The notes beneath the pieces were generated by a model. It saw only the letters and a program-made list of their open reading frames with translations. It ran no database searches and had not been told where the DNA came from. From a virus: a stretch of DNA of 64,000 bases. Each line of letters begins with the position of its first letter. The first letter of the stretch is position 1. Shown here piece after piece: positions 6,713 to 64,000 of the stretch. The stretch covers positions 30,164-94,163 of the IMG/VR virus record IMGVR_UViG_3300036715_002448; one strand, given 5' to 3'. Position numbers and translations under genes: made by a program.

Positions 6713-6713
6713 A

Positions 6714-8931: not shown

Positions 8932-8938
8932 ATTGTTT

Positions 8939-8951
8939 TATTTTATATATC
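8939..8951 (-). promoter_or_regulatory. Late-type promoter for the endonuclease in the topoisomerase locus
   Basis: The minus strand reads GATATATAAAATA, ending 7 nt before the ATG at 8931. It lies in the 66-nt gap after the topoisomerase N-half, so the endonuclease can be transcribed separately. Confidence 0.6.
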
Positions 8952-8997
8952 TTTGCAAACTTACCAAATATACCATCACGGCAATAGATATAATAAT

Positions 8998-9540
8998 TTA
9001 TTTAATATATTTTAAAATATCATCAGATTCCAACAATTCATCTGCTCTTTTCCAAATGCCGTTAGTTAGTAAAAAAGGATGATTTGCTGTGCATTTTATT
9101 AATTCGCCGCTTTCTAATAGTATTTCATATTCTACATCTGTTATTTGTCCTAACCTAGGAAAACATCCTTCTGAAAAAACAAATTTGTTATTTTTTTCGT
9201 CAAAAGAAACAACTTTCATTTTTTTATTAGGAAATTTTTCTACCCAGTCACCTATTAGAATATAAGAACCATCTTCTAATAAAATAGGAGTATCATAAGC
9301 AAGACAGCTTCCATGATGGTACATTTGATTTGCTGCACACCTACCACTTAATTGAAATACTTTTAGTGGTTTTTCATTTAAGGTTTTCCAAACTCTAATG
9401 GATTCGTTTATAATTTTCCTTTGAGTTGGTTTAAAACCATCTACAACAGATGGAATTGCTCTATTTTCTACAGTGTATTTACCATATTCAGCATATTCAC
9501 TGTCTAAATACTCCGTAATAGTTTTTTGTTGAGTGTTCAT
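8998..9540 (-). CDS. 52: Type II topoisomerase medium subunit (gp52-like), N-terminal half with intein N-part
   Basis: 180 residues. Residues 1-78 are the start of a GyrA/gp52-type subunit (Y-G-K-Y-T-V-E-N-R-A-I-P, V-V-D-G-F-K-P-T-Q-R-K-I, ending Y-H-H-G-S). Cys79 begins an intein N-part of 102 residues: C-L-A-Y-D-T-P-I-L-L, then C-T-A-N-H-P-F, the block B T-x-x-H. The 102/39 split is the canonical split-intein position. The gene starts directly after the large-subunit gene (1 nt gap), so the topoisomerase genes form one operon. Confidence 0.88.
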   Translation of the reverse strand: MNTQQKTITEYLDSEYAEYGKYTVENRAIPSVVDGFKPTQRKIINESIRVWKTLNEKPLKVFQLSGRCAANQMYHHGSCLAYDTPILLEDGSYILIGDWVEKFPNKKMKVVSFDEKNNKFVFSEGCFPRLGQITDVEYEILLESGELIKCTANHPFLLTNGIWKRADELLESDDILKYIK

Positions 9541-9541
9541 A

Positions 9542-11404
9542 CTAAAAATTAATCAATTTGTCTTTGCGTAAATTTGAATTGTCACCAAACCAAATATCTA
9601 ATGATTCTGAAGATTGTTTGTCTGCTGTAAGTTTTAACAAAAATGGATTTTCAATTATTTCTTCGTACTCTGTATCTTCTAAAGCTGCAAGTCCTTTCTT
9701 ATATTCTATGCTCCATTTTGTAGTTTGTGTTTTACTTGCCCATTCTTCGAAATCTTGCATAGTATAAAAATTTAACGAATCTTTTTTGTTTTTTGCTACT
9801 ACAAGAGGAGTCATAACTTTATAAATCCTACCATCAGTAAACAATTCCGGCCAAAATTTGTAAAAGAAATTAGTAAGCAAAGAAGCGATAGAAGTGCCAT
9901 CTGGATCTGCATCTACGTAAAACAAAATCCTACCATATCTTAAATTTTCTGCTTTTTCACCAAATTTTAATCCTAAAGCACCCATTAAATTTTTAACTTC
10001 TTCATTTTTGATAATGTCGGTTGTTTTCATTTCATTAACATTCAAAAATTTACCACGTAATGGGAAAGCACCAAACAAATTAGGTTCCCTACATTTTCTA
10101 ACAGCCGAAAGAGCTGAATCCCCCTCAAATAAACCTAAAGAACATTGCTCCCTATGTGTTCTTGCTTTAGCATCTATAAGTTTTAGGATTTTTACATTAC
10201 TTACATCCTTGTTCAATTTTCTAATTTTTGAATTCAAGTCTGCTTCTTGTTTTCTTTGAATCCAATCTAAGATAGAAGCAACAACTTCAGATGCAAATAT
10301 ATTTTTAATAAGTTTATCAGAAACCTCATGAGAAGAACCAAAGTCTTTAGGTTCGGTAATAAGTTTTTCTTTAGTTTGCGAACTAAATGATGGGTTAATG
10401 ATTGTACAATTAACAAAAAGCATTATGTGATTTTTTATATCACCAGGTTTTATTTCAACTTTGTGTTTTTTCTTTATCAAAAATCGTAATTTTTCTACTA
10501 TTTGATTAGTTATATGTGAAACATGAGTACCTCCATCTTTAGTTTCATTAGAATTAACAAATGAAATTGTTTCGTATCCTGCTGCGGAATATCCTACTGC
10601 TACTTCCCAATTTTCAGAACGTTCTGTCCAAGTAGTAACAGTACTTCCATCCTCTGGATTATTAACATAAAGGTCGGCATATTCTTTAAAGGATTTAAAT
10701 CTAAACCTTTCATCGTTAAATGTTATTTTCAATTCAACATTACATGCAGCTATATCAAGCACTCTTTTCTTTAATAACAAATAATGGTCTTCATCTATTT
10801 TAGAAAGACCAAAGTATTTGAAGTCAGGAACATAAGATATTTCTGTAAAGTTTTTTGACGACTCTGTAATTTTAACAGCCGACCTATGAGACATGTTATC
10901 TGAAAACGTTTGTAAAAATTGTTTTTGGCCATCTGCTGTTTTAACAATGAATGTTTTAGAAAATATATTTGTTAATGTACTTCCTAATCCATTTGTTCCT
11001 GCTACAACTCTATCTTCACTATCGTCAAAATTAGAACCAGAACGAAGTTGTGAAAATATTAATTCCGGGATCCATTTTTTGTGTTGGGTATGTTGTATAA
11101 CAGGAATTCCACCATTATCCTTAACAGTAATGGTGTCATCGGTAACAGATACTACAATAGTGTTTAGATTCTTATTTCTTTTTGACTCATCTACTGCATT
11201 TGTAAGAATTTCATCAAAAATTTTAAGAAAAGCAGGATTATAAGTTACTGATTTTCTTTGAATTTTATTATTTTCATATACAAATTCATCGGATGTTTGT
11301 TGTTTTGTAGAGCCTATGTAAGTTGAAGGACGGTGTAATACGTGCTCTACGTCGGTTAAAACCTTGTATTTGCTTGATACTTCTTTTGCTACTTCTTTAG
11401 ACAT
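9542..11404 (-). CDS. 39: Type II DNA topoisomerase large (ATPase) subunit, gp39/GyrB-like
   Basis: 620 residues. The GHKL ATPase signs are D-E-I-L-T-N-A-V-D-E (about 64-73), D-N-G-G-I-P (about 96-101) and G-T-N-G-L-G-S (about 137-143). The TOPRIM domain follows with L-F-E-G-D-S-A (about 424-430) and V-D-A-D-P-D-G-T (about 503-510), the acidic metal site; the last motif has D-G-T where cellular enzymes usually have D-G-S/A-H. It pairs with the split gp52-like subunit next door to form the phage topoisomerase used in replication. It is intact and carries no intein. Confidence 0.9.
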   Translation of the reverse strand: MSKEVAKEVSSKYKVLTDVEHVLHRPSTYIGSTKQQTSDEFVYENNKIQRKSVTYNPAFLKIFDEILTNAVDESKRNKNLNTIVVSVTDDTITVKDNGGIPVIQHTQHKKWIPELIFSQLRSGSNFDDSEDRVVAGTNGLGSTLTNIFSKTFIVKTADGQKQFLQTFSDNMSHRSAVKITESSKNFTEISYVPDFKYFGLSKIDEDHYLLLKKRVLDIAACNVELKITFNDERFRFKSFKEYADLYVNNPEDGSTVTTWTERSENWEVAVGYSAAGYETISFVNSNETKDGGTHVSHITNQIVEKLRFLIKKKHKVEIKPGDIKNHIMLFVNCTIINPSFSSQTKEKLITEPKDFGSSHEVSDKLIKNIFASEVVASILDWIQRKQEADLNSKIRKLNKDVSNVKILKLIDAKARTHREQCSLGLFEGDSALSAVRKCREPNLFGAFPLRGKFLNVNEMKTTDIIKNEEVKNLMGALGLKFGEKAENLRYGRILFYVDADPDGTSIASLLTNFFYKFWPELFTDGRIYKVMTPLVVAKNKKDSLNFYTMQDFEEWASKTQTTKWSIEYKKGLAALEDTEYEEIIENPFLLKLTADKQSSESLDIWFGDNSNLRKDKLINF

Positions 11405-47712: not shown

Positions 47713-49629
47713 TTATTGAATAGCTTCTTTTTGCAATTGGCTAAAACCACCAACTTTAATAATTTCAACTCTTTTATCAAAAAGTTCCATAGGCAATTCG
47801 CTATGATTTATTACCCAAGTATTCAATTCATATTCTTTAGTAATTTCTTGAAGAATTTTTATTATTTCATATACACCTGCTGCATCAACAGAAGAGAAAA
47901 TCTCATCAAGGAAAAGTAAATTAAGTGTAGGATATTGAATTTTTAAAATTTTAAGTAATGCAATAATAATAATAAAGTCGGCACGTTTCCTTTCGCCAGT
48001 TGACATGCTTAATGGATTTATTTGTTCACCGATTGAAGTAATTACACAGTCAAACTTATCATCAAATTTAATAACATAAGGTAAGTGAACTTGATTAATC
48101 ATCATATTAATATTTTGATTAAGAGTAGGTAGTATAGTTTTCATTGCTAAATTCTTAACACCATCATCGCCTAAAATGTATTCAAGAATTTCCAAGAAAG
48201 AATCTTCCGTTAAATACTCTGTTTGTTTAACTTTCCTGTCGCTTATTTTAACTGTATTTTCGTCTAATAATTCATTAAGACTGTTTTTATCAGTTTCTTT
48301 ATCTTCATTAACTATTTTTTCCGCTTCTTCTCTGTATTGAGTTATTAAAATAGATGATTTTGTAGAAATACCATATTGTTCTTTTACTTTTATTGCTATA
48401 GCTTTTATTTTTTTATCTAATTCTAATAGCTCATTTTTTACTTCATTTACAATAAATTCCTTTTCTCCTAATTGTTGTTCTAATGTTTGTTTATTATGAA
48501 CATGTGAATCTGTTGTTAAAGGTGCTCCACATGTAGGACAAGTGTCATTTTGATATAATCTAATTTTTTCTTTAATTGTTTTTAGTTCATGGTGTAAATT
48601 ACCTAATGATTGTTTTTTGTTTTCCAATAATTCTGTTACCTTAGTCTCTAATTGAGTCAATTTAGCATAGTCTTCATCTACTAATTTTTTAGAGTTTAAC
48701 AATTCTTGAATTTTGGTTTTGTAATCAGCAATTAGCTTATTTTTATCATTTTTTTTAAAATTTTCTAATTTTTTAATTCGATCTGTTATAGAAATTATCG
48801 TCGAATCAATGATATTTAACTCGTCATAAATTGTTTTAAGTTTTTCTTTTATTTCTTTTCTTTCATTTTTTATTTGGTCCTTCATTTCATTAATTACAGA
48901 AAATCCAAACAACCTATCAATAATATTTCTTTTATCAAGAGGCGTCATTGTTAAAAATGAACGAAAGTCATTTATAGAAAGAACAACTATATTCTTGAAA
49001 ACGTGATAAGGAATGTCGAAAATTTCATTGTCAAGATAATCTTGCACGTTATTGTTACCTGCCGTATCATACTCAATTCCATCAATTTCTACTTTTAGAA
49101 ATGTGGGAGCAATACCTCTTGTAATTTCTACACTTTTATTTTTAGATAAAAGATGTATTTTGCATTGAAGATTTTTGTTAATTCTATTAGGTAAGTCAGT
49201 TTTCTTTTTCTTTTCAATACGACCATACATAGCATATATAATAGCTTCCGCAATGGTTGAATTGTGGGATACAAATCCATTAGCATAAAATTCTTTTACA
49301 TCTGAAACTTGTATATCTAATAAATCTTTAGTTTCATTTAATAATTCAATACTTGTTATTATTTCTATGCCATCTATAGTTTCAATACTATCACCTACTT
49401 TAAAATCTTTTATTTTTTTCCAATTTTTATAAAATAATAAATGATCCGGCGAACCTATTATTGATTTATTTTTTGTTGATATTTTTATACATTTGCTATT
49501 TTTTGCAGTTATTGCAATAGCTTCAACATGTTTTAATCCAATTCTTGTATTAACCTCTATTTTATTATTAGATATTGCATTTGTCAATTTTTCAAATTCC
49601 AACAAATCTCCTAATGTACAATTTATCAT
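47713..49629 (-). CDS. 46: Recombination nuclease ATPase subunit (gp46/SbcC-like), C-terminal part with intein C-part
   Basis: 638 residues. The intein C-part runs to Asn123 (ending F-Y-A-N-G-F-V-S-H-N); Ser124 is the first extein residue and completes the Walker A loop as GK-S with S-T-I-A-E-A-I. The extein has the SMC-like layout: ATPase lobe, coiled coil with the zinc hook C-P-T-C near residue 367, a second coiled coil, then the signature M-S-T-G-E-R-K-R near 546 and Walker B L-L-F-L-D-E-I near 575. The start lies 7 nt after the endonuclease stop. Partner is gp47 at 51084-52169. Confidence 0.88.
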   Translation of the reverse strand: MINCTLGDLLEFEKLTNAISNNKIEVNTRIGLKHVEAIAITAKNSKCIKISTKNKSIIGSPDHLLFYKNWKKIKDFKVGDSIETIDGIEIITSIELLNETKDLLDIQVSDVKEFYANGFVSHNSTIAEAIIYAMYGRIEKKKKTDLPNRINKNLQCKIHLLSKNKSVEITRGIAPTFLKVEIDGIEYDTAGNNNVQDYLDNEIFDIPYHVFKNIVVLSINDFRSFLTMTPLDKRNIIDRLFGFSVINEMKDQIKNERKEIKEKLKTIYDELNIIDSTIISITDRIKKLENFKKNDKNKLIADYKTKIQELLNSKKLVDEDYAKLTQLETKVTELLENKKQSLGNLHHELKTIKEKIRLYQNDTCPTCGAPLTTDSHVHNKQTLEQQLGEKEFIVNEVKNELLELDKKIKAIAIKVKEQYGISTKSSILITQYREEAEKIVNEDKETDKNSLNELLDENTVKISDRKVKQTEYLTEDSFLEILEYILGDDGVKNLAMKTILPTLNQNINMMINQVHLPYVIKFDDKFDCVITSIGEQINPLSMSTGERKRADFIIIIALLKILKIQYPTLNLLFLDEIFSSVDAAGVYEIIKILQEITKEYELNTWVINHSELPMELFDKRVEIIKVGGFSQLQKEAIQ

Positions 49630-49636
49630 TTTAATT

Positions 49637-50761
49637 TTAATTTTTTAAGTAATTTAAGCATTTTTGTAAAGTATTTTCTTTGTTTTCATTATAATCGATT
49701 TCCCAAATAGTAAGAACATCATATCCATTTATTTTAGCTAATTCTATTTTTAAATTATCCATGTCCCATTTTTCTTTGGCTGTTATTTTCAAACCTCTTA
49801 TAACATCAGTTGATTTATGCATTAATGGATTAGCATGCCAATAGTCACCATTAAATTCTATTATCTTATTATTATATGTAAAATCATAGGAACATTTTAG
49901 CTTACCATCCTTAGAACTAATCCACTTTTCTTTTTTAGGAATTTCTATGTTTAATTCTTTACAAATTAATGCAATTATTTCATTAGCAAATTTAGAAGAA
50001 GGAGACCTACTGTCACCTTGTTCATTAAAATTTTTATGTAATGATTTAATCCATTTTTCCTGCCTATTATTATATTTTTTTGTTCCTTCAATAATTCCTA
50101 GTTTTTCAATACATTTTTCAAGAGTAAATGTTGATTGACGTTCTTTTAATTTTTGTTTAGCTTCTTCTATTGAAAACCCTTTTTTAATCCAGTAATTTAG
50201 TTGAGTTGGCAACGTGGCAATATATTTTTCTGGATTTTCCTTTCTTTTCTTAGAAAATTTTAAAGCTTGTTTTCGTTGAAATTCAGAAACCTTTAAAATA
50301 GATTCTTCCTTAGAAAATCCTTTTTTGATATAATAGTAAATACTATTTGGTGAATTTTCTAATTGCTTTATAGCAGAATCTTCTGTAGAAAATCCTTTCG
50401 CTTTCCAGTATTTTAAACAAATCGGACCTCCATTAGACTTGTACCTTTCTGGATTAATTAAACGTTTTTTTATCAGTTTATCAGAATTATTTTTTTGCAA
50501 GTCACTTATTACCTTTTTTGCATATTCAATAGAATGTCCTCGTAATGTATAGTATTCAGTATTTAGTGACGAAGGTTGTTTTCCATTATTTTCAGATTTA
50601 ATATAATTACTTAATGTTTTTATTAAAATATAAGTAGGAATTTCATCTACTGATAATCCTAATTTTTCTATAGTATCAAATAATTTTACAGAATTCCATT
50701 TTTTAAAAAAATCAATTTCTAATAAATTCCTATTTTTTAACTTTGCTAAGTCAGTTTTCAT
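49637..50761 (-). CDS. Free-standing Vsr-like homing endonuclease inserted in gp46 gene
   Basis: 374 residues. The middle has several short repeats (Y-Y-I-K-K-G-F-S-K-E-E-S; Y-W-I-K-K-G-F-S-I-E-E-A; A-K-G-F-S-T-E-D), probably DNA-reading modules. The nuclease core is Y-D-F, then I-I-E-F-N-G-D-Y-W-H-A-N-P, then V-L-T-I-W-E-I-D. The segment R-Q-S-T-F-T-L-E-K-C-I-E-K-L-G is shared with the endonucleases in the terminase and helicase loci. Zinc-type Cys pairs are absent from this one. Confidence 0.85.
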   Translation of the reverse strand: MKTDLAKLKNRNLLEIDFFKKWNSVKLFDTIEKLGLSVDEIPTYILIKTLSNYIKSENNGKQPSSLNTEYYTLRGHSIEYAKKVISDLQKNNSDKLIKKRLINPERYKSNGGPICLKYWKAKGFSTEDSAIKQLENSPNSIYYYIKKGFSKEESILKVSEFQRKQALKFSKKRKENPEKYIATLPTQLNYWIKKGFSIEEAKQKLKERQSTFTLEKCIEKLGIIEGTKKYNNRQEKWIKSLHKNFNEQGDSRSPSSKFANEIIALICKELNIEIPKKEKWISSKDGKLKCSYDFTYNNKIIEFNGDYWHANPLMHKSTDVIRGLKITAKEKWDMDNLKIELAKINGYDVLTIWEIDYNENKENTLQKCLNYLKN

Positions 50762-52613: not shown

Positions 52614-53768
52614 TTATACAATATTGTCAGCCATTATTACTTCATCAGTTTCTATCAGTCTCATATAGCTGTATTGAACATTATATTTACACTTCATATT
52701 CTTCCCTGCACCATTCCTTACTTTAAGAAGCTTAAGCCAATACTCGTTTCTAATTTGCATTTCTGGTATTTGGATAATTCCTAACAATACATCCACAGTG
52801 TGAGCTAGTGCTGCAGATTCAGAAATATCCGACATATTAACATTAGCAGAGTCCCATCCTTGTTTTCCAAATTGTGTTGCAGTTATAACTAACCAATTAT
52901 TTCTAATTGCCATAGCTCTTAAATCTTCGGCAATTTGTTTAATTTTCATATAAGTATTTTCTGAATTAGGATTACGATAATTCATCAAAATATTTATATA
53001 ATCGATTATTATAACTTGAAATTTTATTCCTTTAGCTACTTCTAATTCTCTTAAATATAATTCAACATCCGGGACTGATGCAGCTGATGTTGCAAATTCT
53101 TTAACATGAAGTTGACCTGGTGGAATAATTCCATTTGATATATTCAAAAGCTTATTTTTTATATAATCTTGCTTTTTAGACATTTTTTCATAATCTTCTA
53201 TTTTAATATCTAATAAATTAGCACCCATACGTTGATTATAATTAACTTCCGACATTTCAGCAGTTATAACAGCAACATTATTCCCAGCTCTTGAGTGATT
53301 TACTGCTTCGTTTGCCAAGAAAATAGAATTGTGTGAAAGTATATCATTTGTCCAATATCTATGATTTTCATCATCAACTTGAATGTCATACATATTTTCA
53401 AAATATCCTAAATTAGAGACTTTTTCTACCGTATCTAATCCTGTTTTTGTAACAATTTTATCATATCTTGGATCTTTACTAAAATTATTTAAATCTTTTA
53501 CAAAAGTTTCCCTCCACAATTCATTAAAAACAATATGAGTATCGGCACACTTTAATTTTTTACCTTGATTAGTTTCCAATTCCCAAACTTCATAAGGAAC
53601 AGTTTTTCCAATTCCTTTAATCGAAGACCATCCTTTATCGGTTTCTATTTCCCAATCATAAATTTCAAAATAGTCTTCGTATTTATGTTCTACTAAGTCA
53701 GAAGGTTTTATTTCTAAATTAGGTTTTGTAAAAAGTTCTAACAACTCATTAAATTGATTATCGGTCAT
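52614..53768 (-). CDS. 41: Replicative DnaB-type helicase (gp41-like), C-terminal part with long intein C-part
   Basis: 384 residues. The intein C-part ends at Asn147 (D-E-N-H-R-Y-W-T-N-D-I-L-S-H-N); Ser148 completes Walker A as GK-S with S-I-F-L-A-N-E-A-V. The helicase core continues with V-I-T-A-E-M-S-E near 168, Walker B V-I-I-I-D-Y-I-N near 252, and T-A-T-Q-F near 295. It unwinds DNA ahead of the replication fork. The last 12 intein residues are the same as in the terminase intein C-part, showing common origin. The start lies 6 nt after the endonuclease stop. Confidence 0.88.
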   Translation of the reverse strand: MTDNQFNELLELFTKPNLEIKPSDLVEHKYEDYFEIYDWEIETDKGWSSIKGIGKTVPYEVWELETNQGKKLKCADTHIVFNELWRETFVKDLNNFSKDPRYDKIVTKTGLDTVEKVSNLGYFENMYDIQVDDENHRYWTNDILSHNSIFLANEAVNHSRAGNNVAVITAEMSEVNYNQRMGANLLDIKIEDYEKMSKKQDYIKNKLLNISNGIIPPGQLHVKEFATSAASVPDVELYLRELEVAKGIKFQVIIIDYINILMNYRNPNSENTYMKIKQIAEDLRAMAIRNNWLVITATQFGKQGWDSANVNMSDISESAALAHTVDVLLGIIQIPEMQIRNEYWLKLLKVRNGAGKNMKCKYNVQYSYMRLIETDEVIMADNIV

Positions 53769-53774
53769 TTATAT

Positions 53775-54989
53775 TTAATTTAAAAATTCTATGCATTTTT
53801 CTATAACTTGTTTTTTATCTTGTTTAAAATCTGATTCCCAAATAGTCAAAACTGTATAATTATAAGAATTAGCTAATTCAACTTTTTGCTTATCTATCTC
53901 CCATTTTTCATAAGCAAATTTTTTAGTTCGTTTATTAAAATAGTCTTTGTCGTATATACTGGGATTCATGTGCCAAAAGTCGCCATTAATTTCTATAATT
54001 TTTTTGCCAACTTTAAAATCAAAACCCATCCGTTTTCCACGTTCTTCATCGAAAATTTCAAATTCATTTTTATAACACATTGCATCTGGATAAAATTTTA
54101 ATAATTCATCAATAACAGTTTTTGAAATGTTTGAAATTCTAGTAGAATTAATCGATTTTGGTTTTTTTGAAAACTCTCCATTTTTATACTTAGATTCAAT
54201 TTTAGCAGACCATTTAGAATTTCTATCATTATATTTTTTTATTCCTAATTCTTCTCCATATTTAGCAATACATTTTTCTAAAGTGAAAGTTTTTTGACGT
54301 TCTTTAACAAATTGTTTAGATTCTTCCTCGGAAAATCCTTTATTTAACCAATACTGTATTTGATTTGGTCTTTTAGCATTTTTAAAATAATTTGGGTTTC
54401 GTTTGTTCCATTTTATTATTCCAGCACTTCGTTTTTTGCCAATTTCTAACATTTTTTGTTTAGCTTCATTTTCAGTTAAACCCATTTTAATATAAGTTTC
54501 AACCGTTTGTCGGCCAAAATTACCAGTTTCTTTTTTTGTTTTTAAAGATTTTTCTTGAATTTTATTAGTTGTAATCTTTAATTTATTTTTTGCATCTTCT
54601 AGTGAAAACCCTTTATTAAGTAAAAAATCTATTGAACAAGTTCCAAACTTTTTAGAACGAATATCTTTAATTTGCTCGATATTCCAACCTCTATCCAACC
54701 AATATGCTTCATTTTGTGCATGTGTCGAATAAATTCCTAAACAATTAAATGCACTAAAACGAGTGTTGTATGTTTTAAAGTCTTGTTTTGTTATAAGTTC
54801 AAAATACTTAGTTGAATATGACTCGTATAAATTTTCAAAATATGTATGATTTTCTAAATTTAAGTTTAAAATACAAGATTGTACTATAGTAACAAATTCA
54901 GTAAAACAAACAGGAATAGTTTTCCAATTAGTATATTTTTTTCGTAATTTGTTTAATTTAAAATCACAGTATAAATCTTGAAGTACCAT
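53775..54989 (-). CDS. Free-standing Vsr-like homing endonuclease inserted in the helicase gene
   Basis: 404 residues from the Met at 54989 (M-V-L-Q-D-L-Y-C-D-F), chosen because a late-type promoter sits just upstream; an in-frame ATG at 55040 would place the promoter inside the coding region and overlap the helicase N-half stop. Several repeats (L-D-R-G-W-N-I-E-Q; L-N-K-G-F-S-L-E-D-A; Y-W-L-N-K-G-F-S-E-E-E-S) precede the core F-D-F, then I-I-E-I-N-G-D-F-W-H-M-N-P, then V-L-T-I-W-E-S-D. Closest relative in the window is the terminase-locus endonuclease. Confidence 0.85.
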   Translation of the reverse strand: MVLQDLYCDFKLNKLRKKYTNWKTIPVCFTEFVTIVQSCILNLNLENHTYFENLYESYSTKYFELITKQDFKTYNTRFSAFNCLGIYSTHAQNEAYWLDRGWNIEQIKDIRSKKFGTCSIDFLLNKGFSLEDAKNKLKITTNKIQEKSLKTKKETGNFGRQTVETYIKMGLTENEAKQKMLEIGKKRSAGIIKWNKRNPNYFKNAKRPNQIQYWLNKGFSEEESKQFVKERQKTFTLEKCIAKYGEELGIKKYNDRNSKWSAKIESKYKNGEFSKKPKSINSTRISNISKTVIDELLKFYPDAMCYKNEFEIFDEERGKRMGFDFKVGKKIIEINGDFWHMNPSIYDKDYFNKRTKKFAYEKWEIDKQKVELANSYNYTVLTIWESDFKQDKKQVIEKCIEFLN

Positions 54990-54995
54990 AAGTTT

Positions 54996-55006
54996 TATTT
55001 TATATC
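54996..55006 (-). promoter_or_regulatory. Late-type promoter variant for the endonuclease in the helicase locus
   Basis: The minus strand reads GATATAAAATA, 6 nt before the chosen ATG at 54989. Confidence 0.5.
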
Positions 55007-55040
55007 TAAGCAAGTGAACGAAATATAGGGAAAAAGCCAA

Positions 55041-55730
55041 TTATTTCTTAACTAAGTTGTAAAATTTTTCTATAGATATATTTAAAATTTCTAGTGTTTT
55101 TGTATTACGGATTTTAATAATAGTATCTTTATGGGCACACTTACCTATATTGGGTTCACCAGCGTAAGCAACTAAAGTTCCTAATGAATATCCGCCTAAT
55201 AAAGAATCTATCCAATTGTGATTAGAAGAAAATTTAGTACCAGCAGGAGTTATATGTGACTCAGGATTAAAAAAGTCACTACCTAAATTTGTATTAAAAG
55301 ATATCGAATTTCTTTCATTAATAAGTGTTTTTACTTTGTTAATAACATCCTTTACATTATTTGGGTCTACTTTAACAGTCTTTACATATTCAATTGTATC
55401 TACCAATGATTTATCTAATGACTTCCATAGTACCCAAGCTTGACAAGTTTCAGTCAACCAATCTGGATCATAGTCACTTAACTTTTCATCAAAAACAACA
55501 TTTATAATACTTTCTGATATTTGGGTTTTAAATTGTGCTTGATTAGCTAATGTTTTTAATTGAGCTACCGAAGGAACCTGGTTAAACCTTTCATAAAATT
55601 GTTTTGTAATATTATGAAGGACTGAAAGCTGTTTATTTTCATAAAAAGACTCAACTACGTTTTTTAAGTATTTTGGATTTTCTCTTGTATAAAGATAAAA
55701 AATTTTTTCAAAAGCATCAGAACCAACCAT
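55041..55730 (-). CDS. 41: Replicative DnaB-type helicase (gp41-like), N-terminal part with short intein N-part
   Basis: 229 residues. Residues 1-197 are the helicase N-terminal domain and linker, ending in the first part of Walker A, A-G-E-P-N-I-G-K. Cys198 begins an intein N-part of 32 residues (C-A-H-K-D-T-I-I-K-I). It must join with 52614-53768 to make an active motor. The linker region (F-S-S-N-H-N-W-I-D-S-L-L-G-G-Y) matches the DnaB-family core start. Confidence 0.86.
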   Translation of the reverse strand: MVGSDAFEKIFYLYTRENPKYLKNVVESFYENKQLSVLHNITKQFYERFNQVPSVAQLKTLANQAQFKTQISESIINVVFDEKLSDYDPDWLTETCQAWVLWKSLDKSLVDTIEYVKTVKVDPNNVKDVINKVKTLINERNSISFNTNLGSDFFNPESHITPAGTKFSSNHNWIDSLLGGYSLGTLVAYAGEPNIGKCAHKDTIIKIRNTKTLEILNISIEKFYNLVKK

Positions 55731-55820: not shown

Positions 55821-56130
55821 AATAATCAAATTTTAAAATTTTATAAACCTTTTTCCTTGGTGGGGCTACATTACCGGACTCTATGAGAGTGTTAAGAAGT
55901 TTATCGGTTTTTTCTTTGTCATTATCCAGATATTGCAATAAAAAATTGTATACAAAAAAATGACCCGTTGGATCATTTTCACTAATCCTTCGTTGTTCTA
56001 ACGCCGCCATTTGTGTTGAACTACTTATCCAATCTAAATAAAAGTATTCAAAATCTTCTATTGTTGGAAAATTAGGGTCACTTTTATATGACCCTAATAT
56101 GTACTTTAATTTTAAGTTTTTCAAATCCAT
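55819..56130 (-). CDS. Small hypothetical protein downstream of UvsX
   Basis: Not recognised. 103 residues, aromatic-rich (I-E-D-F-E-Y-F-Y-L-D-W near 24) and helical, with a basic C-terminus (P-P-R-K-K-V-Y-K-I-L-K). Its start overlaps the last base of the UvsX C-half stop, a sign of coupled translation, and a hairpin terminator ends the unit. It may be a replication or recombination accessory protein. Confidence 0.5.
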   Translation of the reverse strand: MDLKNLKLKYILGSYKSDPNFPTIEDFEYFYLDWISSSTQMAALEQRRISENDPTGHFFVYNFLLQYLDNDKEKTDKLLNTLIESGNVAPPRKKVYKILKFDY

Positions 56131-57611
56131 TAGTCAACATTTAGTTCTCCTGAGTCATCAATTAAGTCATCTAGATATTCATCTGTAATTTCATCATCTA
56201 ATCCATAAGTAAACCTTGGTTTGATGCATTTTTCATTAATGGCTTCTAATACTTCTTGGTTAAAAACTTCCGCGGTAAACAATTTACTTGGAGGAATTCC
56301 TTCTCCTAAATGTTTAACAATAAAATTACGAGCAGTTTCTTTAGGTGTAAAATACACTAATTCCCCTGTTTTAGCATTAAAAGGTTGTGCTAAAGTTTTG
56401 TCTTTATCATTTAGCTTTTCATATTCTTTTGCTGTTAGTATGTTTCCTTTTTGAATTCCACAAACATTCCAAGAAATATATTCTTCCATTCCAATATAAG
56501 GATTCATACCCATATCCCATCTAATATGTAGTTTAATAGATTGAGGTTTAACATAACGATTTTTTAACGCAGTTGCAGTAACAATAATGCCTGTTTGAAC
56601 AGCCCCATCTTTTAATTTTGCTTTTGATAAATTAACAATAATAGAAGGTGCGTAAATAATACCTCCACCACCTGAAATATTAACAGAAGGAAAAATTCCA
56701 ACTGACGCGTATGTATGGTTCGACATAATCATGGGAATACCTAAACAAGATAAGTCAGAAGTAATAATACGAAACAATGATCTAATTATCTTAGCACGTG
56801 TCATATCTGCAGCAGTATTACCACCTAATGCATCATCAATTTCTTTAGTAGTCGCTAACATACCTAAAGAGTCTAAGAAAATTGCAATCTTTGGAATTTG
56901 AAAACCTTTTTCTTTAGCTTCCATTAATTTTTTAACTAAAGTAGTAATAGAAGTTCTAAACTTAGCTAAATCTGACATTGGTTGATGATCAAATTTTGTA
57001 CCATCAATATCAAATCCTTTAATAGAGTCAACATCAATAGCACCTTCAGTATCATAATAAACTACATAATAACCAAGTTCTTGTGCATTTCTTGCTATAT
57101 TTAACATTGCAAAAGTTTTTGCTGTGTTATGTGAAGATATTCCATCACACCAATATCTATGATTTTCATGTAAAACTTCCCAATCATACACTTCTTCTTC
57201 CCCAATTTCAACATTGCTAATTACCTTTTGATAGCCTGTATTAGTTAAAATTAAGTCACCAACTTTTAAATTTTTAGTAAATTCAAAATCGAGATTAAAT
57301 CTACTTTCTATTAAATGATCTTCCGAAACTTTGATTTTTTTATCAATTGTTTCTAATTGAAAAATCTTCCTTGGTTTTTTAATAAAAAAGTCACCTAACA
57401 ATTGATAACCATCTGGTGTATCTATTAAAAAATTAGAATTTGTATAATTTAAAACTAAATCGCCTGCTTCAACAAATTCGCTGTATTTTTCACAATGCAA
57501 ATCAAAAATACGGTCAAAGTCTTCACTTGCAATAGCTTGAATTTTTTCAATATCCCATTCAGGATACATTAGCAATTCTTTTATTTTTTCTTTTTTTGTC
57601 ATTTTATACAA
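56130..57611 (-). CDS. uvsX: Recombinase UvsX/RecA-like, C-terminal part with long intein C-part
   Basis: 493 residues. The intein C-part ends at Asn162 (E-N-H-R-Y-W-C-D-G-I-S-S-H-N); Thr163 starts the extein T-A-K-T, which completes the Walker A loop. The recombinase core follows: V-V-Y-Y-D-T-E-G-A-I-D near 186, Walker B I-A-I-F-L-D-S-L-G near 240, and I-I-M-S-N-H near 291, with the acidic C-terminus usual for UvsX. It promotes strand exchange in recombination-dependent replication. The start overlaps the endonuclease stop by 8 nt; M-T-K-K-E-K three codons in is an equally good start. Confidence 0.88.
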   Translation of the reverse strand: MYKMTKKEKIKELLMYPEWDIEKIQAIASEDFDRIFDLHCEKYSEFVEAGDLVLNYTNSNFLIDTPDGYQLLGDFFIKKPRKIFQLETIDKKIKVSEDHLIESRFNLDFEFTKNLKVGDLILTNTGYQKVISNVEIGEEEVYDWEVLHENHRYWCDGISSHNTAKTFAMLNIARNAQELGYYVVYYDTEGAIDVDSIKGFDIDGTKFDHQPMSDLAKFRTSITTLVKKLMEAKEKGFQIPKIAIFLDSLGMLATTKEIDDALGGNTAADMTRAKIIRSLFRIITSDLSCLGIPMIMSNHTYASVGIFPSVNISGGGGIIYAPSIIVNLSKAKLKDGAVQTGIIVTATALKNRYVKPQSIKLHIRWDMGMNPYIGMEEYISWNVCGIQKGNILTAKEYEKLNDKDKTLAQPFNAKTGELVYFTPKETARNFIVKHLGEGIPPSKLFTAEVFNQEVLEAINEKCIKPRFTYGLDDEITDEYLDDLIDDSGELNVD

Positions 57612-58809
57612 TTTTATTTTTTATAAATTCTATGCATTTTTCTAATTTAAAAGGATCATCATCCCATACAACAAGCAAATCGTATCCTTTTTGAATTATT
57701 AAATTATTTTTATAATTATCGAAAATTAAATTATCAAAATAATTCATTTTTTTTAATGGGTTAAACCAAGTTAATTTTTCTTCTTCGGTTGCATCTGGTT
57801 TAGGATGAAATGTTGTTCCATTGTATTCTATTGCTATTTTTTTAGAAGGTATAACAAAATCATAAAAATATAATCGTTTTGTTAAATCATCATAAATAAA
57901 ATATTCAGGGTTATTAAAATATACATCATCAATACATAAATTTAAAGAAGAAATAATAGACTCAAATAATTTAATTGAAACACTTGATACTCTAGGTAAT
58001 CTTAGCCTTTGTTTTATTTTAATTTGGTTTTTATCTTCATCGGATTTGGAATTCATTGTAGATCTCCATTTAATCTGCCTTTCTATAAATTTATTAGTTC
58101 CTATTTCCTTTCCATATTTTAATATACAATTTTCTAATGTAAAAGCACCTTGTAACTTTCTTTCTACTAATGCATTTTTAGCATCTTGTAAGTCCAGTCC
58201 TTTGTTTAAATAATACTTTAATTGCATGTTTGTTAACATTTCTTTGGTACCATTTTTATGATTTTTCCAAAGATTAACAAATCCAGTTCTTTGTTTATTA
58301 TAAATTTTTTCTCTTGCTTCTATTTCGGTAAATAACAAATTAGTATTAGGATTAATTTTGTCTAAATAAAATTCCCATCTATTGCTATTACCCTTAGACT
58401 TATTTATTTTATCTAAATTTGGATTATTTTTTAATGTTGATTGTATTTTTTTTGCTATTTCTATATTACAAGTTGCCTGCAATTTTTTTATTTTTGATAA
58501 TCCAAATTCTTCGCTATATCCTCTATCTAAATAGTACTTTAAATTTCTACAATTAGGATGTAATTTTAAAAGTTTATAAGGATTACCAAAATTACGTTTT
58601 TTATAATTATCATACAAATGGAAATTTTCACAATAAAACTTATATAAATTTTTTAAAACAGTTAAATTAGGATTATCTGAAAAATTACAACTTATTTGTA
58701 TATTTTTATGAAATTCTAAAATATCTACAGGATTTTTTTTATGTATTGTTTTATTTTTAACAGAGTTTTCAAAATATAAATCACATATTGATAATTTTGT
58801 GTTTTGCAT
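57604..58809 (-). CDS. Free-standing Vsr-like homing endonuclease inserted in uvsX
   Basis: 401 residues. Repeats of the form Y-Y-L-D-R-G-Y-S-E-E-F-G and Y-Y-L-N-K-G-L-D-L-Q-D-A occur in the first half; A-F-T-L-E-N-C-I-L-K-Y-G-K parallels the other endonucleases. The nuclease core is Y-D-F, then I-A-I-E-Y-N-G-T-T-F-H-P-K-P, then L-L-V-V-W-D-D-D. This core is closer to the topoisomerase-locus enzyme than to the other four. Its ATG lies inside the end of the uvsX N-half. Confidence 0.85.
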   Translation of the reverse strand: MQNTKLSICDLYFENSVKNKTIHKKNPVDILEFHKNIQISCNFSDNPNLTVLKNLYKFYCENFHLYDNYKKRNFGNPYKLLKLHPNCRNLKYYLDRGYSEEFGLSKIKKLQATCNIEIAKKIQSTLKNNPNLDKINKSKGNSNRWEFYLDKINPNTNLLFTEIEAREKIYNKQRTGFVNLWKNHKNGTKEMLTNMQLKYYLNKGLDLQDAKNALVERKLQGAFTLENCILKYGKEIGTNKFIERQIKWRSTMNSKSDEDKNQIKIKQRLRLPRVSSVSIKLFESIISSLNLCIDDVYFNNPEYFIYDDLTKRLYFYDFVIPSKKIAIEYNGTTFHPKPDATEEEKLTWFNPLKKMNYFDNLIFDNYKNNLIIQKGYDLLVVWDDDPFKLEKCIEFIKNKIV

Positions 58810-59074
58810 TAGGATTAGATTTTATTTTATATATCTTTATCCTTTGATTTTTTTGTACACAGCCTGATTCACCAACAATAGCAACCCCTTTATTACAAGG
58901 AATTCCTTTAAATAAGTCTCCTGAAAATAACGCATTTAAATGATAATTTCCAGTACCAATATATTCTAACGTTTTCGTAAAATCAGTACTAGAAATTACA
59001 CCACCAAATTGATTAATCGTTTTTAATTCTTTTCTTACTTCATCAAGAGAAAAAGTTTTTAATTCCTTTGCCAT
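58781..59074 (-). CDS. uvsX: Recombinase UvsX/RecA-like, N-terminal part with very short intein N-part
   Basis: 97 residues. Residues 1-71 are the UvsX N-terminus (F-S-G-D-L-F-K-G-I-P near 50, A-I-V-G-E-S-G near 65-71), stopping inside Walker A. Cys72 begins an intein N-part of only 26 residues (C-V-Q-K-N-Q-R-I-K-I), the shortest in the window. It overlaps the endonuclease start by 29 nt, and the endonuclease promoter lies inside its intein coding region. Confidence 0.85.
   Translation of the reverse strand: MAKELKTFSLDEVRKELKTINQFGGVISSTDFTKTLEYIGTGNYHLNALFSGDLFKGIPCNKGVAIVGESGCVQKNQRIKIYKIKSNPNAKHKIINM
58823..58835 (-). promoter_or_regulatory. Late-type promoter for the endonuclease in uvsX, inside coding sequence
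   Basis: The minus strand reads GATATATAAAATA, 13 nt before the ATG at 58809. It is embedded in the intein N-part reading frame, where the codons spell an I-K-I/N-type segment. Confidence 0.55.
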
Positions 59075-59090: not shown

Positions 59091-60047
59091 TTAAAAAAGA
59101 GTATTTTTGTAATATGAAAGTACTGGATTTAGCGGAGGTAATCCTGCAGCAACAATAACTCTATTAAGAGGATTGATTATAACATTTTCAAATTGTTTAT
59201 CAATATCCATTTTTGGAGCTATTTCAGATGGGAAAATACCTGGTTTAAATGCAAATACATCACAAGCATTTTCATTTGTGTAATAAAATTTAATTTTATC
59301 ACCTGTATGTATTAATTCATATTTTGTTTTTAAGTTTGCTTTATTTACAAGATAATTGAAATTTCCTGCTGCCCTAACATGAACTGGACATTTTGAAGCA
59401 ATTTCTAATTTATCAACATCATTTAAAATGTATTTATTATAATCAGAAATTGAAAAAGAAACAGATAATTTTTCCAGATTTGTTAATTTGAATTCTTCTT
59501 TAATTGATTTAAGAAGTTTTACTAAATCTGCATTGTCTTCATATTTAAGCGTTTTCTTTTTGAATATTACTTTAATAACTTCAATCAACTTTTGTCTTGC
59601 AAATGGAGGTGATGATGATTGAACAATTTCAAGTCCTGTTGTTTTAATATAAGTTAATGGATCAAAGTTTTTGCCATCTTTCCAAACTATGTTTTGTACA
59701 TATTTTTTCTTTGCAACAAAAATTGCTGATTCAGCAATAGTTTCAAGTTCAAAATCCAAAAAGTTATTTGTATTTCTAACAGTAGCAAAATCATTTAATA
59801 CATTTTTAATGAACTTAGCAAGTCTAAAATCATTAAGAGCCATAACAAAGTCTTTTTCAGTTCCTTGCCATTTAACAGCTTCCATAACTTCACCAAAAGA
59901 AAGATAACCAGAATTGTGAACTAATAAATTATTTGCGATAAATGTATGCGTATCATCGTGCATTTCTATATCATAAACATATTCATCTTCAAAATCTCCT
60001 AAACATTCAACTGATTCTATTTCCTCAAATTCATAGTCAAATTCCAT
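59091..60047 (-). CDS. 43: Family B DNA polymerase (gp43-like), C-terminal part with intein C-part
   Basis: 318 residues. The intein C-part ends at Asn45 (T-F-I-A-N-N-L-L-V-H-N); Ser46 is the first extein residue and continues the catalytic motif as YGDTD-SGYLSF. The rest is the polymerase palm end and thumb: F-E-L-E-T-I-A-E-S-A-I-F-V-A-K-K-K-Y near 105, with K-T-T-G-L-E-I-V-Q-S-S near 139, a family B KKxY/KxxG-type pair. The C-terminus (P-P-L-N-P-V...) probably carries the clamp-binding tail. The start overlaps the endonuclease by 31 nt. Confidence 0.88.
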   Translation of the reverse strand: MEFDYEFEEIESVECLGDFEDEYVYDIEMHDDTHTFIANNLLVHNSGYLSFGEVMEAVKWQGTEKDFVMALNDFRLAKFIKNVLNDFATVRNTNNFLDFELETIAESAIFVAKKKYVQNIVWKDGKNFDPLTYIKTTGLEIVQSSSPPFARQKLIEVIKVIFKKKTLKYEDNADLVKLLKSIKEEFKLTNLEKLSVSFSISDYNKYILNDVDKLEIASKCPVHVRAAGNFNYLVNKANLKTKYELIHTGDKIKFYYTNENACDVFAFKPGIFPSEIAPKMDIDKQFENVIINPLNRVIVAAGLPPLNPVLSYYKNTLF

Positions 60048-61237
60048 ATTTTTTCTTTAAGATTATTAATAATTTGTGTTTTGTTTAAATTGTAATCTGA
60101 TTCCCAAATTACTATAGTTGTTATATTATGTTCTTCGTTTAAAGTTTTATACCTTTCTAAATCATTTTTCCAAATATCAATAGCTTTTAATTTCTTATTA
60201 AAGAAAAATGCTTTATCGTTAGCTGAATAAATTTCTGGATTAGCGTGATATAAGTCTCCATTGAATTCAATACATAAATTTAATTCATTTATAAAATAGT
60301 CAAGTTTAACATATTTTCCTAATGATTTTAAATATTTACCAAATTCCATATTTTTAGTTGCATAATATGTAGTTAAATTTAATTCTTCTATTGATTTATC
60401 TAAAGTAGAAAAAAGCTCTTGAGACACATTAGAATATAAATGACTAGTAGTTTTTTCTATAAATTCTTTGTATTTTTTTAAACCAATTTCATTACCATAT
60501 AATCTAATAAGATTGCTAGATGTAATACCTTTTTGTTTACAAACATTTGCATATTTCTTTAATCCTTCAACATAACCATATTTTTCAATAAAATAATCTT
60601 TTGAATTTCCGACATAGGCTTGCTTAGCTTTGTAATTTTCAAACCTTATTTTACCTTCAGTATCACCATATTTACTTATTAAATTTTTTTCTGTTATAGC
60701 TCTTGATTTATTAAATTCATCAAATTCTGATTTTGTCCAACCGTACTTTAATTTTTTATATTCAAATTTATTTTTTTCTGCTTGTAATTTACAATAATTT
60801 TCATATATTTCTCTACCTTTAATATCACCATGTCTATTTATAGAATTTTCTAACGTTATACCTAATTTTTTCCTTTGTATTTGCTTATCAGATTCATTTA
60901 TATTAAAAGCAAAACAAGTTATATCATTTAGTGTATTAAATACTCTATTTTTTGTTTTTAATTTATATGAAGGAAATTTATCTATTAAACAACTTTCACA
61001 AACACATAAATTATAAGTAGTTTCATTTACTTTTTTAGTTAGTTCATCTGATTTACCTATTTTTTTAATAGTAGAATTGCTTATTTTATATGAACTACCA
61101 TCATAAAATATACTATTATTACAAATAATACACTTAGCAGAATTAGGAAAAAATTTTAAGTCAATATAAGCATAAATATTTTTATCATTAGTTGATTTTT
61201 GTTTTTTAATTAATTTCTTTAAATCGAGTATCTCCAT
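60017..61237 (-). CDS. Free-standing Vsr-like homing endonuclease inserted in the polymerase gene
   Basis: 406 residues. N-terminal Cys pairs (C-I-I-C near 38; C-V-C-E-S-C near 98-103) can bind zinc. The middle is a series of about 25-residue repeats, each with a K-Y/R-Y-G-x-x-E/D-G/I segment (K-Y-G-D-T-E-G-K-I-R-F; K-Y-G-Y-V-E-G-L-K-K-Y; L-Y-G-N-E-I-G-L-K-K-Y). The core is L-D-Y-F, then L-C-I-E-F-N-G-D-L-Y-H-A-N-P, then T-I-V-I-W-E-S-D. The different repeat type suggests a different target-reading arm. Confidence 0.85.
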   Translation of the reverse strand: MEILDLKKLIKKQKSTNDKNIYAYIDLKFFPNSAKCIICNNSIFYDGSSYKISNSTIKKIGKSDELTKKVNETTYNLCVCESCLIDKFPSYKLKTKNRVFNTLNDITCFAFNINESDKQIQRKKLGITLENSINRHGDIKGREIYENYCKLQAEKNKFEYKKLKYGWTKSEFDEFNKSRAITEKNLISKYGDTEGKIRFENYKAKQAYVGNSKDYFIEKYGYVEGLKKYANVCKQKGITSSNLIRLYGNEIGLKKYKEFIEKTTSHLYSNVSQELFSTLDKSIEELNLTTYYATKNMEFGKYLKSLGKYVKLDYFINELNLCIEFNGDLYHANPEIYSANDKAFFFNKKLKAIDIWKNDLERYKTLNEEHNITTIVIWESDYNLNKTQIINNLKEKIWNLTMNLRK

Positions 61238-61288: not shown

Positions 61289-62026
61289 TTACAACTTTTT
61301 TACACCAATAAGTAAATCATTTTTAACATCTATTTCAGATGCTTTTATTTTTATTTTTGCACCATTTCGCAAAACCATTATACTATGGTCATCTGTTATT
61401 TCAATAAATTTACCACTTTTTGATATAACTTTCCATTTTTGTTTTTTGACTTTGTGTCTAATGATATGTTTTACTGACGACCATTTTAATTTATCATCCC
61501 AATTTAGTATTTTTACAAAACCTTCATTTAATGTTACAACTTCATTTTGATTCAAATCTATTGTGTAGCCATTTTTTGAATAAAATTTAAAAAACTCTTC
61601 TATTGACAATTCTCCTAAAATATTATCAATTACAGTAGATGATTTTTCAACACTATCCGTGTCACCATATTTGTAAATAGTTCCTTTTATTTTTGGCACT
61701 TTAAATCCTTCTGGTACTCCTAATTTTCTATGAAGTTCAACATCTTTATGAAAAATTTCATGAAAATACATTTCAATCATTTTTTCTGTATGTCTAATTG
61801 CTTCTTGTCCTTGAAGTGTAATAGTTTCAGCAATATCTGAATTGTAAAAATGAAAAAATTCATTTCCGAACGCTCCGTAAATAGAATTAATAGTTAATTT
61901 AATGGATTGTTCTTGTGATGCGCAATTTTTTGCAAAAGTCTTGAAGGCTTCAAGTTCTTCATTACTAAGCGTAGAATAGTCAAGGTCTTCAAGTTCTTGT
62001 TGTGTTAACGATTGAGGGTTTATCAT
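61289..62026 (-). CDS. 43: Family B DNA polymerase (gp43-like), middle part with intein N-part
   Basis: 245 residues. It begins abruptly before motif B: K-L-T-I-N-S-I-Y-G-A near 43-52, then T-I-T-L-Q-G-Q near 69. Motif C is reached at K-Y-G-D-T-D (119-124), and Ser125 begins an intein N-part of 121 residues (block B I-T-D-D-H near 213). The exonuclease domain and motif A (D-x-x-S-L-Y-P) are absent, and the region upstream is the clamp gene, so they must be encoded elsewhere. It starts 1 nt after the clamp stop. No intein-like residue precedes its Met, so this first break is not an intein break. Confidence 0.85.
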   Translation of the reverse strand: MINPQSLTQQELEDLDYSTLSNEELEAFKTFAKNCASQEQSIKLTINSIYGAFGNEFFHFYNSDIAETITLQGQEAIRHTEKMIEMYFHEIFHKDVELHRKLGVPEGFKVPKIKGTIYKYGDTDSVEKSSTVIDNILGELSIEEFFKFYSKNGYTIDLNQNEVVTLNEGFVKILNWDDKLKWSSVKHIIRHKVKKQKWKVISKSGKFIEITDDHSIMVLRNGAKIKIKASEIDVKNDLLIGVKKL

Positions 62027-62774: not shown

Positions 62775-62884
62775 AAGGTTTAAAATAAATTTTTATTGTT
62801 ATATGTTGATTTTTGAATAAAGTTTTGCTTATTTTTATGTTCATGTATTCTGTTAATAGAAATATCATAAAGTACAAAAACTAT

Positions 62885-64000
62885 TTAATTGAATGAACAA
62901 TTATGATAAAAAGTCAAACTTTTTACACAGTTTAGGCTAAAAACTCGTCCTAATTGTTCATTAGGTAAAGAAACTCTATACTTCATTTTAGAGTTTTTTA
63001 GATTAAGAAATATTTCTTTCCAGTCTTTACACTCACTAAATTGTTCCTTCCATTGGTGCTTTAATGAGCTTATTTTAAATTCCGGATAGAATTTTCTTTT
63101 ATTTTTTTCTTTTTCAAATATGACTTGTGCGCCACGTCTAGCAATTTCTATAGAAGCATTTATTGGGTCAGTGTAATCATACATTAAATTACCTATAATT
63201 GATGAATACATTGGACTGACTTCATAAAAAGTTAAGCCACTTAAATGAGCACGTTTCTTTAAATTTTGACTAAACATTTCACGTTTCCATAAATTCTTTG
63301 TTAATCTATTGAAAGAATGGGATTTATAATCACTAGTTTCACCAGTTTTGTCTTTGAATTTTAAGTCCTCGATGAATATTCCTTTACAATGGTACTCTTT
63401 AGCAAGTTCATTTATGGACTTTGCTATTTGAATGGATTCAAAGTTCAATTTATTGTTTAAATGTTTAAACTTTGGATCAGAAGAAGCAACATTTAAGTTC
63501 TTTATCTTGTCTATTAATACTTTAACAGAATATTCTCTAACAGCAATGACTTTAACCGAACCATCTTTTGTATTTTCAATGATTGAACATCCAATATTTG
63601 ATGGGTTCATGTCAATGCCTAAATAACGATTTTCAATGACTTTTGGTTTAGGTTCTTTAACCTCATCAAAAGAAATGTAAATAAAATTCTCATTTAGCTC
63701 TACTTGAAAAGGTTGTTCTTTTAAGGAAGTCCTAAGTTGAAGAATTTCAAGCTTTTTCCTGTAATTGGACTTTAAGTTTGGTAAATGCAAAGTAAATTTA
63801 ACTTTATTGCCTGGTTTAAAAATCAATTGGTTATCCTCGATTTTAAGTTCAAAGTGTCTGTTTCCTTTTTGAAGAGCTTCGCCTTGAACTTTTAAGTTAG
63901 AAAGTCTTTTTGCTTTCCATTGATCGTTAGTTATTTCATTTTTAAGTCGTTTAAGTAAATTATGTTTGCCTCCAAAAATGAACTTTTTACCTTTTGACTT
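62885..64000 (-). CDS. TnpB-like RuvC nuclease family protein, 5' end beyond the window
   Basis: The frame stays open past the internal Met at 63826 to the right edge, adding 58 codons (K-F-I-F-G-G-K-H-N-L-L-K-R-L-K-N), so the protein has over 370 residues. RuvC-like motifs: L-G-I-D-M-N (first Asp), I-F-I-E-D-L-K-F (Glu), and Y-T-D-P-I-N-A-S-I-E-I-A-R-R-G (last Asp). The Cys4 zinc ribbon expected before the last motif in IS605 TnpB is missing; P-M-Y-S-S-I-I-G-N-L replaces it. No TnpA gene or hairpin ends are seen. It may be a domesticated nuclease or the RNA-guided type. Confidence 0.72.
   Translation of the reverse strand, partial: KSKGKKFIFGGKHNLLKRLKNEITNDQWKAKRLSNLKVQGEALQKGNRHFELKIEDNQLIFKPGNKVKFTLHLPNLKSNYRKKLEILQLRTSLKEQPFQVELNENFIYISFDEVKEPKPKVIENRYLGIDMNPSNIGCSIIENTKDGSVKVIAVREYSVKVLIDKIKNLNVASSDPKFKHLNNKLNFESIQIAKSINELAKEYHCKGIFIEDLKFKDKTGETSDYKSHSFNRLTKNLWKREMFSQNLKKRAHLSGLTFYEVSPMYSSIIGNLMYDYTDPINASIEIARRGAQVIFEKEKNKRKFYPEFKISSLKHQWKEQFSECKDWKEIFLNLKNSKMKYRVSLPNEQLGRVFSLNCVKSLTFYHNCSFN

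What the first reader, a model, noticed from the sequence alone, without database searches (positions are those of the whole stretch)
61289..62026. DNA polymerase divided into at least three polypeptides
The segment with motif B and half of motif C starts immediately after the clamp stop, without exonuclease domain or motif A. The first break is not an intein break, the second (inside YGDTD-S) is. An upstream gp43A-like piece must lie outside the window, as in some Aeromonas T4-like phages with split gene 43. The mixed use of non-covalent assembly and trans-splicing in one enzyme is unusual.
Basis: partly seen in the sequence, partly recalled or inferred. Interest (0 to 1): 0.75.

Follow-up and report, generated by a model that had tools for sequence, protein, structure and literature searches.

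The report
Phage DNA polymerase in three pieces
This large phage encodes its DNA polymerase in separate genes, two of which carry the halves of a self-splicing protein (split intein) that should join their products, while a third piece (outside the sequenced fragment) must pair with them without being joined; the same layout is already recorded in a few other phages, so this is a new example of a known arrangement.

Summary
61289-62026(-) is gp43B1: the fingers P-helix, motif B and YGDTD of a T4-type family-B polymerase, followed by a 121-aa N-intein. A VSR-like endonuclease gene (60017-61237) and gp43B2 (59091-60047, 45-aa C-intein plus the rest of palm and thumb) follow. Exonuclease and motif A (gp43A) are absent from the 94-kb contig, but the contig ends 2 kb upstream, inside a TnpB gene.

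The same gp43A / gp43B1 / VSR / gp43B2 layout is annotated in Aeromonas phages Aes123/Aes509 and occurs in PTm1/PTm5; LR756500 and Lak-B5 have the same three pieces. The Aes123 PolB1 split intein has been shown to splice, and gp43A/gp43B of Aeromonas phage 25 co-purify as an active polymerase.

Survey result: the first break, at the fingers tip (T4 ~505-525), marks all 33 members of the window's polymerase clade (support 100/99) and occurs separately elsewhere. The intein is an independent, patchy addition. In relatives 43A lies 1-10 kb upstream, downstream, or 222 kb away on the other strand, so cis-splicing cannot close that break. None of 16 relatives' records holds an uninterrupted polymerase, so remnants are unlikely. 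The window phage's own gp43A was not found.

The parts
61655..62026 (-). gp43B1 extein (124 aa): P-helix side of the fingers, motif B, palm up to YGDTD
   Evidence: Maps to T4 gp43 ~514-620; PF00136 8e-13; RB69 gp43 match from RB69 ~543
61862..61900 (-). motif B (KLTINSIYGAFGN)
   Evidence: Invariant K43, N47, S48, Y50, G51 in alignment A1
61655..61669 (-). motif C YGDTD with both catalytic Asp; intein inserted directly after it (T4 D620/S621)
   Evidence: Invariant D122, T123, D124, S125; junction mapping
61292..61654 (-). N-terminal half of a split intein (121 aa, Ser1, no Cys; R-H motif NX, TxxH block B)
   Evidence: PF14890 8.5e-7; aligned with the Aes509, PTm1, LR756500 and Lak inteins; R190-H191 corresponds to the NX motif of PMC10189870
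60017..61237 (-). VSR-like homing endonuclease gene between the intein halves (406 aa); overlaps the start of gp43B2 by 31 nt
   Evidence: phrog_22677 at 4.6e-61, the family that holds the Aes509 VSR endonuclease
59913..60047 (-). C-terminal half of the split intein (45 aa, ends LLVHN, +1 Ser)
   Evidence: Matches the solved PolB16 intein 8cpn/8cpo at 9e-6; PF14890
59094..59912 (-). gp43B2 extein (273 aa): rest of palm and thumb
   Evidence: phrog_262 at 6.9e-40 and phrog_1918 at 9.5e-38; spliced B1+B2 = 397 aa against 395 aa for the uninterrupted gp43B of the nearest relative L124
62028..62774 (-). sliding clamp (gp45-type); the clamp-43B adjacency is conserved in the clade
   Evidence: Foldseek hits to PCNA, E ~1e-10; same gene upstream of 43B in about 20 related loci
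62885..64000 (-). TnpB-like transposase gene cut by the contig end; gp43A is expected beyond it
   Evidence: phrog_506 transposase 1.7e-5; the sister contig L002 also ends inside it

Best explanation
The replicative T4-type family-B DNA polymerase of this large phage is made as at least three polypeptides. gp43A (exonuclease, motif A, N-helix of the fingers; its gene lies off this contig) ends at the tip of the fingers. gp43B1 and gp43B2 (in the window) each carry half of a Ser1/Ser+1 split intein inserted after YGDTD; the halves associate and trans-splice, giving a ~397-aa gp43B. gp43B then assembles non-covalently with gp43A, so that the motif A aspartate (gp43A) and the motif C aspartates (gp43B) meet in one active site. 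The VSR-like gene between the intein halves is a homing endonuclease that spreads the intein; it is not part of the polymerase. Shown here: the anatomy, intein residues, map positions, the absence of an uninterrupted polymerase in relatives, and conserved gene order. Inferred: splicing, assembly and homing (from characterised homologues) and the existence of gp43A in this particular phage.
For: Both breaks map to the same T4 positions in Aes509, PTm1, LR756500, Lak-B5 and the window. Full set of intein residues: Ser1, R-H motif NX, TxxH, HN/S; the same border rule applied to Aes509 gives halves of 120 and 39 aa, as published. The three-piece layout is annotated in Aes509 and present in PTm1, LR756500, Lak-B5 with TAG=Q and L041. 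A stand-alone exonuclease/motif A ORF and a separate gp43B in 16/16 records searched whole. 85 gp43A ORFs end at T4 489-507 and 49 gp43B ORFs start at median T4 525. The window sits in a 33-member clade, all split, support 100/99. gp43B exteins against nearest kin L124: dN 0.34, dS 2.2 (near saturation), pointing to purifying selection. Biochemistry from papers: phage 25 43A/43B co-purify with polymerase activity (PMC2988022); the Aes123 PolB1 intein splices in trans (PMC11923092).
Against: gp43A of this phage has not been seen; the contig ends first. No experiment exists on this sequence. gp43B1 is only ~31-48% identical to its intein-bearing relatives and the C-intein holds one Cys, so splicing efficiency is unknown. 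All three of its closest relatives on the tree (L124, L121, L126) lack the intein.
Confidence: 0.9

Rival explanations
1. The pieces are remnants of a decayed polymerase, and a complete polymerase elsewhere in the genome does the work.
For: Only 94 kb of a genome that in relatives reaches 220-550 kb is in hand.
Against: No second polymerase on the contig. 16 relatives' records, four of them phage records searched end to end, hold 43A and 43B in separate ORFs and no uninterrupted copy. ORFs are open, catalytic residues invariant, selection purifying, and the spliced length matches the uninterrupted gp43B of the nearest relative.
Confidence: 0.04
2. Break 1 is closed covalently by another route (second intein, trans-splicing intron, frameshift), so the mature enzyme is one chain.
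For: Introns and several inteins per gene occur in related large phages (PMC12363816; L098).
Against: No gp43A was found to end in intein sequence. gp43B1 begins with its own ATG after an in-frame stop and right behind the clamp gene. In Lak-B5 gp43A is downstream, and in Lak-A2 it is 222 kb away on the opposite strand, so neither cis-splicing nor frameshifting is possible there. Only an undetected trans-acting system would remain.
Confidence: 0.04
3. The missing N-terminal part is an artefact of a misassembled or truncated contig, with an intact fused gene in the real phage.
For: The contig end lies close by, inside a TnpB gene, a typical assembly break.
Against: gp43B1 has its own start behind a complete clamp gene, an adjacency conserved in about 20 other loci. 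A near-identical contig (L002, 99.97% over 10.7 kb) shows the same junction. All 33 clade members start gp43B at about the same place.
Confidence: 0.02

Closest known systems
Aeromonas phages Aes123/Aes509 gp43A + gp43B1 + VSR endonuclease + gp43B2
   Same: Same two break points on T4 gp43 (fingers tip, D620/S621), same intein type (Ser1/Ser+1), same endonuclease family between the intein halves.
   Different: In Aes509 43A and 43B1 are adjacent; here the clamp and a TnpB gene lie upstream of 43B1 and 43A is off the contig. The fingers-tip break has a separate origin on the tree. The window C-intein has one Cys, the Aes509 one none.
Tenacibaculum phages PTm1/PTm5 split polymerase
   Same: 43A, intein-bearing 43B1, VSR endonuclease, 43B2; one record feature is named 'intein-containing split DNA polymerase precursor'. 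Same fingers-tip-split clade.
   Different: 43A is 2 kb upstream; gp43B halves only ~35% identical.
Uncultured 462-kb phage LR756500
   Same: 46% (B1) and 52% (B2) identity; clamp-43B1-HEG-43B2 order; gp43A found.
   Different: 43A lies ~10 kb upstream with a fractured ribonucleotide reductase between; one extra ORF between clamp and 43B1; the endonuclease between the intein halves is of another family (phrog_3339).
Two-piece gp43A + gp43B: L124/L121/L126 (IMG/VR) and Aeromonas phages 25/44RR
   Same: Polymerase in gp43A and gp43B; the first three are the window's nearest kin (61-65% for L124).
   Different: No intein in L124/L121/L126: gp43B is one uninterrupted ORF. Phages 25/44RR are known here only through a review (PMC2988022).
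Pseudomonas phage MIJ3 split polymerase with intein
   Same: Split intein at the same T4 position, with an endonuclease gene between the halves.
   Different: No fingers-tip break: exonuclease to motif C is one 803-aa ORF; HNH rather than VSR-like endonuclease.

Membership tests
Split T4-type gene 43 (gp43A/gp43B) | gp43B starts between the fingers helices, before motif B, without exonuclease or motif A | tested here: met
   gp43B1 begins at T4 ~514 with an in-frame stop upstream
Split T4-type gene 43 (gp43A/gp43B) | a separate gp43A gene with exonuclease motifs and motif A in the same genome | tested here: inconclusive
   Not on the 94-kb contig; present in all 16 relatives searched whole
Split T4-type gene 43 (gp43A/gp43B) | the two subunits assemble into an active polymerase | not testable with these tools
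   Shown for phage 25 according to PMC2988022
Fractured gene (split intein with free-standing endonuclease between the halves) | N-extein + N-intein in one ORF, C-intein + C-extein in another | tested here: met
   61289-62026 and 59091-60047
Fractured gene (split intein with free-standing endonuclease between the halves) | VSR-like endonuclease gene between the halves | tested here: met
   60017-61237, phrog_22677 4.6e-61, the family of the Aes509 VSR endonuclease
Cysteine-independent Ser1 PolB inteins (Aes123 PolB1 / PolB16 group) | Ser1, Ser+1, motif NX His preceded by Arg/Lys, block B TxxH, C-terminal HN | tested here: met
   and alignment A1; motif definition from PMC10189870
Cysteine-independent Ser1 PolB inteins (Aes123 PolB1 / PolB16 group) | no cysteine in the intein | tested here: not met
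   N-half 0 Cys, C-half 1 Cys; wild-type PolB16 also has non-catalytic Cys, so it belongs to the Ser1 mechanistic group but is not strictly cysteine-less
Cysteine-independent Ser1 PolB inteins (Aes123 PolB1 / PolB16 group) | trans-splicing activity | not testable with these tools
   Shown for the Aes123 homologue (PMC11923092)

The most novel reading that the evidence does not exclude
A whole lineage of large phages, including the window's, replicates with an obligate two-subunit family-B polymerase cut at the fingers tip. The cut is ancestral to the lineage: the clamp gene sits directly upstream of gp43B in most members, and gp43A moves freely (up to 222 kb away, opposite strand). Ser1 inteins were gained or lost on top of this, so members such as the window's phage need both trans-splicing and non-covalent assembly to build one active site.
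Probability: 0.6. Interest if true: 0.5.

Novelty: new member of a known kind. Interest (0 to 1): 0.35.

Why it matters
By itself it adds one more three-piece gp43 to a known kind. The comparative result is of more use. The fingers-tip break is fixed in the sampled members of one polymerase clade, occurs separately several times elsewhere at about the same place (T4 ~505-525), and its halves are unlinked in some genomes. That marks a permissive break point in family-B polymerases, gives natural two-subunit enzymes for biochemistry, and warns that annotation pipelines may call such phages polymerase-less or fragmented. The intein halves are further candidates for cysteine-poor protein-ligation tools.

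Tried and rejected
A search for continuation of the contig end in viral contigs found nothing. Close relatives of gp43B1 by single sequence gave only the near-identical L002, whose contig also stops inside TnpB, so it could not supply gp43A. No fetched contig carrying gp43A shares DNA with the window's contig end beyond ordinary homology, so none could be assigned to this phage. Sequence profiles did not recognise the clamp; a fold prediction did. The fold of gp43B alone was only moderate (pLDDT 73.7, pTM 0.47); its best matches are RB69/T4 gp43, but the low overall TM says nothing about assembly. The paper on fractured genes (Dassa 2009) is not held, and the papers on gp43 diversification in T4-related phages were not found; what is said of them rests on record annotations, reviews and my own knowledge. 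Considered and rejected: remnants, frameshift or intron closure of break 1, assembly artefact.

Full report
What is there. The window is the last 64 kb of a 94,163-bp linear virus record. On the minus strand, reading 5' to 3', it holds a TnpB gene cut by the contig end (64000-62885), a sliding clamp (62774-62028), gp43B1 (62026-61289), a VSR-like endonuclease (61237-60017), gp43B2 (60047-59091), and then uvsX and gp41 in pieces. The clamp is invisible to sequence profiles but folds as PCNA. gp43B1 starts one base after the clamp stop, with an in-frame stop three codons upstream of its ATG.

Mapping. Aligned with T4 gp43 and relatives, gp43B1 covers T4 ~514-620 (P-helix of the fingers, motif B, palm to YGDTD) and then becomes a 121-aa intein half. 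gp43B2 begins with a 45-aa intein half and resumes at the Ser after YGDTD (T4 S621). The helix names come from my own knowledge of the RB69 structure. The predicted splice product is 397 aa; the nearest relative, L124, has an uninterrupted gp43B of 395 aa. The intein has Ser1, the R-H of motif NX, TDDH, and HN/S. The same border rule gives 120 and 39 aa for the Aes509 halves, as published for the Aes intein.

The missing piece. PF03104 finds no exonuclease on the contig, and gp43A of four phages finds nothing better than E 0.15. This absence says little, because the contig ends 2 kb upstream. In relatives gp43A is present: LR756500 ~10 kb upstream; L124, L121 and L041 1-4 kb upstream, with order 43A - (ribonucleotide reductase, not in L041) - clamp - 43B - uvsX; Lak-B5 11.5 kb downstream, counted from the start of 43B1; Lak-A2 222 kb away on the opposite strand. 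All 16 records searched whole have the exonuclease and the 43B part in separate ORFs and no uninterrupted polymerase (in one, L053, 43A itself seems broken once more).

Two independent breaks. Among loci fetched by similarity, all combinations occur: unsplit without intein (T4), unsplit with cis intein (Campylobacter CC_R7), unsplit with trans intein (MIJ3, L046, L069-L071), split without intein (S-CREM2, L121, L124 and many more), split with cis intein (L074, L098), and split with trans intein (Aes509, PTm1, LR756500, Lak-B5, L041, window). 85 gp43A ORFs end at T4 489-507, a median of 2 aa after the last aligned residue, and 49 gp43B ORFs start at median T4 525; near-identical contigs are counted separately there. 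On a tree of the gp43B region (77 rows, break columns left out) the fingers-tip break needs six changes against 26 in shuffles. 33 rows including the window's form one fully split group (100/99), and the others (Aes509, S-CREM2, L197, L189, L081/L193) lie among unsplit kin. Intein presence needs nine changes. The fetched set was chosen by sequence similarity, not by architecture, but it is a sample, and the queries were themselves split polymerases. For some rows the split state is read from the start of the 43B ORF alone. The tree is unrooted, so gain and loss are not told apart.

How it works. Trans-splicing of gp43B1 and gp43B2 is expected from the intact splicing residues and from the tested Aes123 homologue (PMC11923092). 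Assembly of gp43A with gp43B is expected because phage 25 43A/43B co-purify with activity (PMC2988022). In the window's phage both steps are inferred. The VSR-like gene is best read as the homing partner of the intein, as in the Aes phages; homing was not tested.

Novelty. The layout is on record for Aes509/Aes123 and PTm1/PTm5, so the finding is a new member of a known kind. I did not find a paper describing the clade-wide fingers-tip break, the clamp-43B linkage or the unlinking of 43A in large phages, but the library lacks most subscription papers, so no claim of priority is made.

Noticed in passing
58781-59074, 57604-58809, 56130-57611 (-): uvsX is also fractured: a short N-piece ends in the Walker A (GESG | C...) with only ~26 aa of N-intein, then a VSR-like endonuclease, then a long C-intein half before TAKTF: an atypically split intein. 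L041:5487-5795 and 6195-7679 carry the same split without an endonuclease ORF of that length between.
   Followed up: partly
55041-55730, 53775-55040, 52614-53768 (-): gp41 helicase is split in the same manner, with a VSR-like endonuclease gene between the halves.
   Followed up: partly
47713-49629 and 49637-50761 (-): A gp46-like (SbcC/Rad50 type) gene starts with a C-intein half and follows another apparent VSR-like endonuclease gene, so at least four replication/recombination genes in this stretch look fractured.
   Followed up: no
whole contig G000: Ten weak Intein_splicing matches in 94 kb, including two apparent cis arrangements (G000:79424-79783, 83491-83874).
   Followed up: no
62868-62893 and G000:3185-3210: A 26-bp identical element at the end of the TnpB gene recurs near the other end of the contig, perhaps a transposon end.
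   Followed up: partly
L098 (IMGVR_UViG_3300003873_000422) 6316-11240: A polymerase in at least four ORFs (602, 62, 678, 235 aa): fingers-tip break, a further break at T4 ~563, a cis intein at T4 ~620 and a second, split intein near T4 ~690.
   Followed up: no
MK250019.1 (Lak-A2) 122986-124140 (-) and 345571-347206 (+): gp43A and gp43B lie 222 kb apart on opposite strands of one phage genome.
   Followed up: partly
L053 3967-5398: gp43A itself appears broken into two overlapping ORFs (131 and 367 aa), a possible extra piece or sequencing error.
   Followed up: no
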